A stretch of DNA of 59,190 bases. It comes from Acidiluteibacter ferrifornacis (GTDB taxonomy: Bacteria; Bacteroidota; Bacteroidia; Flavobacteriales_E; Vicingaceae). This document shows positions 56,320 through 59,190 of the stretch, in pieces; the stretch's first letter is position 1; every line of letters starts with the position of its first letter. The notes under the pieces were generated by a model. It searched no databases, was not told where the DNA came from, and was given only the letters and a program-made list of their open reading frames with translations. Location of the stretch: NCBI RefSeq assembly GCF_009909615.1, contig NZ_WWNE01000014.1, positions 454-59,643 on the forward strand, written 5' to 3'. Position numbers and translations under genes: made by a program.

Positions 56320-57603
56320 TTATGCGTTTAATTTTTTCTTGATAAAGGTTGGTAAAGCAAATGCAGCAGTATGAATTCCTTCGTTGTAGTAATTCAAGTT
56401 ATTACTTTCTGCAAATGCAGCAGATTTATCTGCATCAAAGTTTTTAGTCGGATGTGCACCACCTTTTGTAGCCATTTGGAAGCTCCAGATACCTGTAGGG
56501 TATGTTGGTATACTAAAAGTAAAGCAGTGAACAGCTTCTTTTCCAAAAACACCTTTCAATGCATGGTTCAATTCAACAAATACTTGCTCGTTGAACATTG
56601 GGGATTCACCTTGTGCAACTAAAATACCGTTGTCGTTCAATGCTTTGTTACAGTCTTGGTAGAATTTATTCGTGAATAAACCTTCAGCAGGACCAACAGG
56701 ATCAGAACCGTCAACAATAATGATATCATAAGAACCAGCCGCAGCATCTTCTACGAATTTGATTCCGTCACCTATGATTAAATCTAATTTTTCATGACCG
56801 AAAGCAGAAGATAATTGTGGTAAATGCAATTTAGACGCTTCAACAACTGCTTCGTCAATCTCTACCATGGTTACTTTTTCTACTGAACTGTGCTTTAATA
56901 ATTCACGAATAGTACCACCATCACCACCACCAATAACTAAGATGTTTTTTGCATTTCCGTGAGTCAACATTGCAGGGTGAGCAATCATTTCGTGGTAATG
57001 TGTTTCATCCTTTTCAGTACACATAATCATGTTGTCAATGGTCAACATTTTTCCGTATGCATAAGTGTCTAACACTTTTACTTTTTGGAAATCTGATTGC
57101 TTATCGAACAACACTTCTCCGGTGTATCGGATAGACAATGCTTGGTTATCATCCTTATCGGTAAACCATACATTTCTCGTATATTTTCCTGGGTTCTGAC
57201 GCTCTTTTGCTTCGCTTCTCATGGTCGACAAGTCGAAATCAATACGCTCTAACTGATCTACAGAACCTCTTCGCATTTCTAATGCAGAGTATGAAGTAGC
57301 TTCGAAAGCTTTCTTCAAGTAGTCAAACGATTTCCATGGGTTTACCTCGTCACCACAAGTAAATAAATCTACTGCAGCATACTGGTACTCAGGCCAGGTA
57401 TGTATCGCCAAGTGACTTTCTTGGATTACTACCACACCGCTCACACCATAAGGTGAAAAGTGGTGAAAAGTTGAATTAATTACAGTTGCACCGGCTGTTT
57501 CAGCAGCCGTAACCATACCATTTTCAATAGTAGAAACCTGGTTCATGATTTCTGGATTACAACCAAAAAATTCAACCAAGATGTGTCTTCCTAATGCGCT
57601 CAT
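56320..57603 (-). CDS. speDE: SpeD-SpeE fusion: AdoMet decarboxylase and spermidine synthase
   Basis: A single chain of 427 residues. The N-terminal domain (1-115) is a class 1B S-adenosylmethionine decarboxylase. E62-S63 in [18 protein letters not shown] is the self-cleavage site that yields the pyruvoyl group, with H68 and C83 matching Thermotoga SpeD numbering. The C-terminal domain (about 140-380) is spermidine synthase with [16 protein letters not shown] and [15 protein letters not shown]. It would decarboxylate AdoMet and transfer the aminopropyl group to putrescine. Because cleavage occurs at residue 62, the mature enzyme should be a small beta chain plus a long alpha-SpeE chain. Confidence 0.95.
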
Positions 57604-57645
57604 TTTAATTTAATTTCTAATGTATATTTAATTGTAAAAAGTTGG

Positions 57646-57674
57646 CAAAAATAGATTTTTAATCCAATTTGCAA
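57646..57674 (-). promoter_or_regulatory. Promoter of the polyamine operon
   Basis: On the minus strand TTG (57674-57672), an 18-bp spacer and TATTTTTG (57653-57646) form a full Bacteroidota -33/-7 pair, 42 bp before the speDE ATG. It is the best complete promoter in the window. Confidence 0.7.
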
Positions 57675-57677
57675 GCT

Positions 57678-58427
57678 TTATTTTATTTCATATAATATTG
57701 GTTTGCTCGGGCTCGCATCATTCTCAAAAGGAGCTATTTGCAAGTTTAATAAATATCGTCCATCTCGAACTTCATCTGAGACGAATACGAATTCAGTAAT
57801 CGTTTTCTGCGTATTTGGTGCAGATGGATAGTTCCAGAATAAATGATGAGAAGCTAATACTCCTTCGTCCATTTCTCGATCTACCGACGGTAAGTCAATT
57901 AACAAATGCTCAAATCCTTTATTCACCAAAAACTCCATGGCTTCCGCTGCTAAATATGGTGGATTAGTGGAACTGTAGTTTCTATGTCTTTTTTCTAATA
58001 AGTTGGGTAAAGTTCGGATGACAATCGCTTCCGCAGATTTTCCTTCCAATGCTTTTTCAACCTGACTTCTCGTAATCACTTCGTCTCCATTTGGCCATTT
58101 TTCAGGCTTTACACTAATCAATTCGGCTGTAAAAAAGAACGTTTTTAATGCATCGTTAACACTATAAAATTCTTTGCTGATATGACCAACACATTCGGTG
58201 TGGGTGCCGTGTCCATGTGGATTAAAAAATATATTGTTAAAATTCACAGAGCCGCCTAAAGCTACACTTCCTGTAAATTGTTCTGTTTGTACTGGTTCTA
58301 TAATTAATGGGTCTACATACCAAGCAGATGCAGCGTCTTTTGAGGCCTTGAGCGGCATGGAAATGTCAATTGGCTCTCCAAGATTGACAGAAAAGGATTT
58401 CCCTTTGTGTGTGATTTCTGCTAACAT
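57678..58427 (-). CDS. Cyclase-family (KynB-like) metal-dependent hydrolase
   Basis: Protein of 249 residues of the cyclase/kynurenine formamidase family. The metal motif is HGHGTHTECVGH, an HxGTHxE variant of the usual HxGTHxD. LLIDLPSVDREMDEGVLASH is the C-terminal active-site block. Substrate is uncertain, and no tryptophan-degradation genes are near. The gene is followed on the same strand by the speDE promoter. Upstream lies a remnant of hemW, a common neighbour of this family in flavobacteria. Confidence 0.87.
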   Translation of the reverse strand: MLAEITHKGKSFSVNLGEPIDISMPLKASKDAASAWYVDPLIIEPVQTEQFTGSVALGGSVNFNNIFFNPHGHGTHTECVGHISKEFYSVNDALKTFFFTAELISVKPEKWPNGDEVITRSQVEKALEGKSAEAIVIRTLPNLLEKRHRNYSSTNPPYLAAEAMEFLVNKGFEHLLIDLPSVDREMDEGVLASHHLFWNYPSAPNTQKTITEFVFVSDEVRDGRYLLNLQIAPFENDASPSKPILYEIK

Positions 58428-58742
58428 CCTCTTATTACCAATTAAGTTTTAAAATGACACACACACTTCCATTCATGATGTTTTTAAAACGTAGAATTGG
58501 TAAATGCCGAGCTTTTAACAAACGAGTATACTTAAGTTTATGCTGAGTATTTCAGCTTGATTTTGTGTTGATCGCTTTTGAAATGCACTATATTGGCTTG
58601 AGAAGAAGCTAAGTATACGACATTTTTTTTCGCCATCGGTATAAAGTTATAAAATTGATTTTAGATAGCGGGGAAACGGGGTAGAAAAATGAATTTTGTT
58701 TTGTAATAAAAGCTTTTGTGGCATTTTTTAGTAGTATCTATT
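58428..58742. other. Noncoding spacer
   Basis: About 315 bp of AT-rich DNA between the cyclase gene and the first REP-like palindrome. I see no ORF, hairpin with U-tract or RNA gene in it. Confidence 0.6.
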
Positions 58743-58767
58743 CACGCGATACAATCGCGCGGGAACC
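58743..58767 (+). repeat. REP-like palindrome, copy A
   Basis: CACGCGATACAATCGCGCGG followed by GAACC. The core CGCGAT-ACA-ATCGCG is a perfect 6-bp hairpin in GC-rich sequence that stands out from the AT-rich surroundings. An inverted copy with one mismatch over 24 bp lies at 59065-59088. Confidence 0.85.
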
Positions 58768-58787
58768 ATGAATTTTAAAAAGTATAG

Positions 58788-59058
58788 TTAATTCTTAACC
58801 CAAAAGCACTCCGAAATAACTGTATCCGCCACATTCATGCCTGCTGTAGAAAGCTTAAAGCCAATTGCTGTTTCTTCGATTAGATTATTAGAAATCTGTT
58901 GAATTTGTTCTTTGAGGTAGGACAATAATTCAGCTCCAAACCGTTCTTGAATTATATTAAAATCAACGCCCCAAGTGGTGCGAAGAGCAGTCATAATGTA
59001 TTCGTTGTACCGATCAGAAGAAGAAAGCTGTTCCTGCTCAAAGTAAAAGCCTTTTTCA
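58788..59058 (-). pseudogene. hemW: hemW 3' remnant (C-terminal domain only)
   Basis: About 90 residues match only the C-terminal end of HemW/HemN-type radical SAM proteins: LSSSDRYNEYIMTALRTTWG, FNIIQERFGAELL and a final LSTAGMNVADTVISECF. The radical SAM domain with its CxxxCxxC is absent. The frame continues upstream only into REP-like sequence (to a TTG at 59096), so similarity begins at about 59058, immediately after the REP. The remnant is bracketed by two inverted REP copies and is next to a transposase-like end. It is very probably nonfunctional. Confidence 0.8.
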
Positions 59059-59063
59059 GCCCC

Positions 59064-59088
59064 CGTTCCCGCGCGATTGCATCGCGTG
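59064..59088 (-). repeat. REP-like palindrome, copy B (inverted)
   Basis: The reverse complement reads CACGCGATGCAATCGCGCGG then GAACG, with 24 bp shared with copy A and one mismatch. It lies 18 bp after the stop of the transposase-like frame and directly against the hemW remnant. Confidence 0.85.
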
Positions 59089-59106
59089 CATATCAAATGT
59101 AGTCAT

Positions 59107-59190
59107 TTAGTATACATTCAATTCTGCAAGAATAATATTATCAATGAGTCCCTTTTCACCTGCATAATCTGCAGCACTGCTGTAGATATA
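59107..59190 (-). CDS. REP-associated tyrosine transposase-like protein, C-terminal fragment (runs off the window)
   Basis: The last 27 codons of an open frame that enters from the window edge: YSSAADYAGEKGLIDNIIL, then AELNVY and TAA. The YSSA..YAG.KGL pattern is typical of the C-terminus of REP-associated (IS200-like, Y1) transposases in Bacteroidota. A REP-like palindrome follows its stop by 18 bp, as expected for such genes. With so few residues the assignment is tentative, but the context supports it. Confidence 0.6.
   Translation of the reverse strand, partial: YIYSSAADYAGEKGLIDNIILAELNVY

What the first reader, a model, noticed from the sequence alone, without database searches (positions are those of the whole stretch)
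58743..59190. hemW broken at a REP palindrome beside a transposase end
Seen: a C-terminal HemW fragment lies between two inverted 24-bp GC-rich palindromes. A transposase-like C-terminus ends 18 bp before the nearer one, and hemW similarity begins right at that palindrome. The next gene is a cyclase-family gene, often adjacent to hemW in flavobacteria. Inference: a REP-associated tyrosine transposase unit inserted into hemW, or mediated a rearrangement there.
Basis: partly seen in the sequence, partly recalled or inferred. Interest (0 to 1): 0.65.

Follow-up and report, generated by a model that had tools for sequence, protein, structure and literature searches.

The report
Spare hemW tail beside REP transposase
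The gene that looked broken is intact on the neighbouring contig; what the window shows is a leftover second copy of its tail end next to a small palindrome-flanked transposase, which looks ordinary except for hints that such transposase units still move.

Summary
The window stops at the end of contig C11, inside a REP-associated tyrosine transposase (RAYT) gene. Contig C17 begins inside the same gene; judged from a relative, about 8 bases are missing between them. On C17, after two REP repeats, lies a complete 376-codon hemW.

The locus reads: cyclase, REP, hemW 3' fragment (last 90 codons), inverted REP, RAYT, REP, REP, intact hemW. A direct repeat of about 375 bp (one REP plus the hemW 3' end) lies on both sides of the RAYT.

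Near the REP the fragment is almost identical to the intact gene (3 differences in 126 bp). Further in it differs like another species' allele (24 in 144; dS about 0.97, dN about 0.07). That suggests recombination with diverged DNA rather than transposition into hemW.

The RAYT unit is 98% identical to one at the same locus in a congener (dS 0.02; cyclase 0.73, hemW 1.03), so it was exchanged recently. A third congener keeps a relic.

Sister-genus genomes carry miniature elements with REPs and RAYT gene starts, a hint of unit mobility.

The parts
57678..58427 (-). Putative cyclase (PF04199); the same gene precedes hemW in G001 (RAYT and two ORFs between) and G002 (one 90-codon ORF listed between)
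   Evidence: Pfam 65.3 bits
58428..58672 (.). Intergenic stretch upstream of the cyclase, 96% identical to G001; only a 25-bp match of it in G002
58673..58766 (+). REP unit A: about 70 bp upstream part plus palindrome 58743-58766; start of the left copy of the direct repeat (other copy L013 601-694)
58788..59060 (-). hemW 3' fragment (stop codon plus HemW residues 287-376), open frame, second partial copy; mosaic relative to the intact hemW
59061..59088 (-). Inverted REP, downstream end of the RAYT unit (CCCC + palindrome 59065-59088)
59107..59190 (-). C-terminal 27 codons and stop of the RAYT; the rest lies on contig C17 (L013 2-475, minus), followed by REP B (L013 525-597), REP A copy (601-694) and intact hemW (725-1855, minus)

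Best explanation
A REPtron (a RAYT gene between two inverted REP palindromes) sits between the cyclase gene and an intact hemW. The window's hemW piece is a surplus, partial second copy of the hemW 3' end. It was left when DNA carrying the RAYT unit was recombined into this intergenic region together with hemW sequence of a related, diverged lineage. Shown: the anatomy, the intact hemW, the direct repeat of about 375 bp around the RAYT, the mosaic divergence of the fragment, and the recent cross-species sharing of the RAYT unit. Inferred: the adjacency of the two contigs, and that import by homologous or microhomology recombination, with gene conversion of the REP-proximal 120-200 bp, made the duplication. 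The fragment itself most likely has no function.
For: Intact 376-codon hemW at L013 725-1855 (TIGR00539 294 bits against cut-off 205.4). Window 58673-59046 matches L013 601-982 in direct orientation on the other side of the RAYT, 346 of 382 columns. The two contig ends hold complementary parts of one RAYT unit that is continuous in G001, with 8 bases of G001 unmatched, and no second copy of the unit was found in either genome. Fragment against intact: 3 of 126 sites differ in the REP-proximal part and 24 of 144 in the distal part (Fisher p 6e-5 for a split chosen after seeing the data; 0 of 5000 permutations over 107 variable sites reach the best break signal); the distal part has dS about 0.97 and dN about 0.07. 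The proximal region is not conserved in general: G001 and G002 differ at 29 of those 126 sites. RAYT dS between G000 and G001 (158 codons) is 0.023, against 1.03 for hemW and 0.73 for the cyclase.
Against: The donor of the distal part is not found; only three genomes of the genus are held. Site patterns in the distal part still group the fragment with the resident hemW (9 sites against 3 and 3), so the source must be a sister lineage or an old duplicate. The distal dS rests on 48 codons. The break point is only loosely placed (58913 to 59004 by different counts). No junction shows a single clean mechanism.
Confidence: 0.6

Rival explanations
1. Old local tandem duplication of REP plus hemW 3' end in this lineage, with the RAYT unit inserted at the repeat junction; gene conversion later made the REP-proximal half identical again.
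For: The repeat is in direct orientation with the RAYT at the junction; fragment and intact hemW are closest to each other in the proximal part, and by 9 to 3 to 3 informative sites in the distal part.
Against: The distal part diverged with dN far below dS, and the intact copy carries more private changes there (7 synonymous, 2 not) than the fragment (2 and 2). A pseudogene drifting that long should have more, mostly non-synonymous, changes. Numbers are small.
Confidence: 0.2
2. The RAYT unit transposed into hemW, or inserted with staggered nicks about 375 bp apart that duplicated the target, and an intact hemW resulted from the duplication or from later recombination.
For: hemW similarity on the left stops within a few bases of the unit's CCCC plus palindrome end, and the unit boundaries shared with G001 coincide with the palindromes.
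Against: The right-hand side of the unit is not hemW sequence but a second REP A with its upstream flank; known IS200/IS605 members do not generate larger target duplications (PMC2817692, passage); the distal half of the fragment is too diverged to be a recent target duplication.
Confidence: 0.12
3. Assembly artefact or mixture of strains at a contig end.
For: The contig breaks inside the RAYT, 130 bp beyond the fragment.
Against: The fragment is continuous with the cyclase side and with the RAYT tail inside one contig; genome 99.93% complete and 0.12% contaminated; the order cyclase, hemW agrees with G001 and G002.
Confidence: 0.08

Closest known systems
REP-associated tyrosine transposase (RAYT / TnpAREP) and its REPtron; most like subclass 2.6 = RAYT group 5 of Bacteroidetes
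   Same: Passes NF047646; motifs NHIH and YIHQNP fit the subclass table of PMC6006769 (passages); flanked by two inverted palindromes, with two further copies elsewhere in the genome.
   Different: The table lists WQ where this protein has WR (FWRHD), though the paper says that region is not conserved in 2.6. Palindromes begin with GTTC rather than GTAG and are few (6 in G000, 6 in G001, 1 in G002). A direct repeat carrying a gene 3' end surrounds the unit.
REPIN / BIME (paired inverted REPs as miniature mobile DNA)
   Same: The fragment lies between two inverted REPs, as a REPIN spacer would.
   Different: The spacer is about 300 bp of hemW, this arrangement was found once in the genome, and its REP A belongs to a larger direct repeat.
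Elements that integrate in the 3' end of a housekeeping gene and leave a displaced 3' end (recalled, not searched)
   Same: Intact gene plus displaced 3' fragment on the far side of a mobile unit (layout only).
   Different: The only ORF of at least 80 codons listed in the unit is the RAYT; no search for an integrase or a core site was made.

Membership tests
RAYT (REP-associated tyrosine transposase) | Y1/HuH transposase domain and RAYT model score above cut-off | tested here: met
   PF01797 34.8 bits (cut-off 23) for G001 and 34.6 for the part held here; NF047646 89.8 bits in G001 and 84.5 for the 158-codon part in this genome, cut-off 80
RAYT (REP-associated tyrosine transposase) | HuH motif and catalytic tyrosine motif Y---NP | tested here: met
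   NHIH at residue 59 and YIHQNP at 145 of the G001 protein; both are seen in the 158 codons held here
RAYT (REP-associated tyrosine transposase) | Gene flanked by two inverted palindromic repeats | tested here: met
   59065-59088 and L013 574-597. Among relatives 13 of 24 tested loci have inverted repeats above 30 shuffles and 11 do not
RAYT (REP-associated tyrosine transposase) | Cognate REPs dispersed in many copies in the genome | tested here: inconclusive
   6 sites in G000, only 2 of them away from this locus (with 1 and 2 mismatches); 6 in G001; 1 in G002; control 0. Dispersed but not abundant
RAYT subclass 2.6 | NH[LIV]H, YIH[QN]NP, Bacteroidetes, atypical REPs | tested here: met
   motifs against the table in PMC6006769 (passages); no tree was built
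RAYT subclass 2.6 | WQ in the guide-recognition motif of the table | tested here: not met
   the protein has WR (FWRHD); [quoted passage not shown]
RAYT (REP-associated tyrosine transposase) | Cleaves single-stranded cognate REP | not testable with these tools
   needs biochemistry
HemW (radical SAM heme chaperone) | Full-length HemW model match with radical SAM domain | tested here: met
   intact copy only: TIGR00539 294 bits, PF04055 and PF06969
HemW (radical SAM heme chaperone) | Radical SAM domain in the window fragment | tested here: not met
   in Pfam the fragment matches only HemN_C; not a working hemW
IS200/IS605 insertion sequence | IS200 transposase model above cut-off | tested here: not met
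   NF033573 25.3 bits, cut-off 55

The most novel reading that the evidence does not exclude
The whole REP-RAYT-REP unit of the Bacteroidota type is still a moving transposable element, not a domesticated resident gene. This one has crossed recently between species. Relatives of it in a sister genus have shed miniature derivatives that keep the RAYT gene start next to or between REPs. At this locus the unit sits beside a hemW tail that could serve as a homology arm for entry at the hemW site.
Probability: 0.32. Interest if true: 0.6.

Novelty: new member of a known kind. Interest (0 to 1): 0.33.

Why it matters
By itself the locus is an ordinary REPtron with recombination debris, and it corrects a 'broken hemW' reading. 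[quoted passage not shown] A near-identical unit in two species whose neighbouring genes are far apart, plus miniature copies containing RAYT coding sequence, would make that question testable in Bacteroidota.

Tried and rejected
Rejected: hemW disrupted by insertion (an intact copy was found). Rejected: fragment as a simple recent copy of the resident gene (mosaic divergence).

Considered and not supported: that RAYTs generally pick up the 3' end of the neighbouring gene. In 30 RAYT loci scanned for repeats (at most six rows printed per locus), 4 (L133, L146, L147, L151) show a direct repeat of at least 100 bp with copies on both sides of the RAYT or one copy reaching into it. L146 looks like a tandem array by its offsets. 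None was studied further.

Inverted-repeat test of RAYT flanks: I gave it 25 of the 30 loci L128-L157 (left out: L129 and L149-L152); L157 had too short a flank; 13 of the 24 tested passed and 11 did not.

Led nowhere: Rfam on 57600-59190, no match up to E 1. Viral contigs: 8 pattern hits, none a relative. Plasmids: 6 records at E 1e-5, all below 60% identity to the RAYT. A search of 46 genomes of the order (400 were asked for) gave no near-identical unit outside G000 and G001; the next best is 67%. Of the 80 named loci fetched only the title and coordinates of L046 were used. Literature searches for RAYT with Bacteroidetes/MITE and RAYT with internal deletion listed no paper that, from title and abstract start, describes miniature elements with RAYT coding ends. 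Only the listed rows were seen, so this is no proof of absence.

Not resolved: whether the 96% identity of 58428-58672 with G001 means co-transfer with the RAYT or constraint.

Full report
What the window holds. The window is positions 454-59643 of contig C11, and 59643 is the last base of that contig. The final 450 bases contain, left to right: a palindrome at 58743-58766; a HemW C-terminal frame on the minus strand whose stop codon is at 58788-58790; the inverted palindrome at 59065-59088; and the C-terminus of a transposase, also on the minus strand, ending at 59107.

hemW is intact. Contig C17 begins inside a minus-strand ORF whose first 158 codons score 84.5 bits against the NCBIfam RAYT model (cut-off 80). 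After two REP repeats comes a complete 376-codon hemW at 725-1855, which scores 294 bits against the HemW model (cut-off 205.4). A protein search of the genome gives three matches: this gene, the window fragment (90% identical, HemW residues 287-376) and a distant radical SAM relative at 24%.

C11 and C17 are adjacent (inferred). In congener G001 (contig length and coordinates equal those of JAGYIE010000002.1, Vicingaceae bacterium M30B7) one continuous 188-codon RAYT lies between the same cyclase and hemW. Window 59060-59190 matches L126 1905-2035 (97.7%) and C17 1-596 matches L126 2044-2639 (98.3%). Eight bases of the relative are unmatched, and no second copy of the unit was found in either genome (40 of 65 and 40 of 63 first-look candidates were scored). 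The second congener, G002 (69% complete), has the cyclase and hemW with one listed 90-codon ORF between them.

Anatomy. The order is cyclase, REP A, hemW 3' fragment, inverted REP, RAYT, REP B, REP A copy, hemW. Window 58673-59046 and C17 601-982 are a direct repeat, 346 of 382 alignment columns identical. REP B on C17 belongs to the unit shared with G001; what follows it here (the REP A copy with its upstream flank) differs from what follows in G001.

History of the fragment. Against the intact gene it differs at 3 of 126 sites next to the REP but at 24 of 144 sites further in (Fisher p 6e-5, for a split chosen after seeing the data; the best break signal over 107 variable sites was not reached in 5000 permutations). 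The proximal region is freely variable between species (G001 against G002: 29 of 126), so constraint does not explain the near identity. The distal part has dS about 0.97 with dN about 0.07 (48 codons); in the same stretch fragment to G001 is 0.81, intact to G001 1.51 and G001 to G002 1.72. The whole-gene hemW dS between G000 and G001 is 1.03. The distal sequence thus seems to have diverged while it was part of a working gene. Polarised changes there are 2 synonymous and 2 non-synonymous on the fragment, and 7 and 2 on the intact gene. Against an outside origin, informative sites in the distal part still favour fragment plus intact (9) over the alternatives (3 and 3), so the source is a sister lineage or an old copy. 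Two scans put the break at 58954 and 59004, while the dense run of differences starts at 58913.

History of the RAYT. Between G000 and G001 the RAYT (158 codons compared) has dS 0.023 and dN 0.008, against cyclase dS 0.73, hemW 1.03 and a histidine kinase gene for which the method gave no finite value. The unit's boundaries of similarity coincide with the palindromes. It was therefore exchanged recently. Because both units lie at the same locus, homologous exchange is as good an explanation as transposition. G002 keeps only an inverted REP and the last bases of the RAYT, fused to the hemW end at a shared ATTCAATT, which suggests that an earlier unit at this locus was deleted there.

Mobility of such units. 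Of 41 genomes searched, 25 have a RAYT relative. Of 30 RAYT loci I tested 25 for flanking inverted repeats; one had too short a flank; 13 of 24 exceed 30 shuffles and 11 do not. In sister-genus genomes I found miniature elements with the start of a RAYT gene. G043: RAYT codons 1-57, whole at C204 and C319, at the very start of contig C225, and in two contig ends, C360 and C172, that overlap by 90 identical bases and are probably one copy split by the assembly; so about four copies. G024: codons 1-19 at C148, C11, C14, C225, C219 and C82; inverted REPs on both sides were seen for C11, C219 and C82, one for the other three. G041: one at C67. The three G043 copies compared are 96-97% alike over 262-267 bp and share nothing beyond the element, though C225 has a flank on one side only. 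In G024 the flanks are not all unrelated: those of C14 and C225 are 72-73% alike over 300-400 bp, and C11 shares 160 bp with C225 and 82 bp with C14. These are draft genomes, so the census is rough. The simplest reading is internally deleted derivatives of a whole RAYT unit; a unit of that layout is present in G041 (L234 755-1426).

Comparison with print. [quoted passage not shown] The protein here fits two of the three tabled motifs; the third (WQ) is WR here. PMC8266576 (passages) says there is no evidence of tnpAREP mobility. PMC3733652 and PMC3116915 were seen in passages only.

Verdict. The finding is a known kind of unit, a REPtron with a RAYT most like subclass 2.6, with recombination debris of hemW. 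The most likely mechanism is import or exchange of the RAYT region by recombination, leaving a mosaic second copy of the hemW 3' end. hemW function should be unaffected. The more interesting lead is mobility of the whole unit, which needs closed genomes and an assay.

Noticed in passing
L187-L192 (G024), L194, L195, L236-L238 (G043), L235 (G041): Miniature elements containing the start of a RAYT gene next to or between REP palindromes; look like internal-deletion derivatives of a whole RAYT unit. Some G024 flanks are related, and G043 C360/C172 are probably one split copy.
   Followed up: partly
window 58428-58672: Non-coding stretch upstream of the cyclase, 96% identical to G001 and mostly absent from G002, with a long-range GTATACTTA / TAAGTATAC dyad; 42-54 bp pieces recur at G000:C17:246175 and C22:25740. 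Possibly another repeat family or a structured RNA; no Rfam match.
   Followed up: partly
G000:C17:16251-16796, G000:C20:160870 and 167316, G000:C19:285358: A second, distant RAYT relative (41% identity) about 14 kb from hemW, and three partial RAYT matches elsewhere in the same genome.
   Followed up: no
L126 2652-3755 and 3876-4412: In G001 two ORFs without Pfam match lie between the RAYT unit and hemW; absent from the corresponding place in G000.
   Followed up: no
L127 4851-4909: G002 keeps an inverted REP and the tail of a RAYT fused to the hemW end at an 8-bp microhomology, a likely footprint of RAYT loss.
   Followed up: yes
L146 (G032:C108): A RAYT inside what looks like an array of roughly 127-bp repeats.
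   Followed up: no
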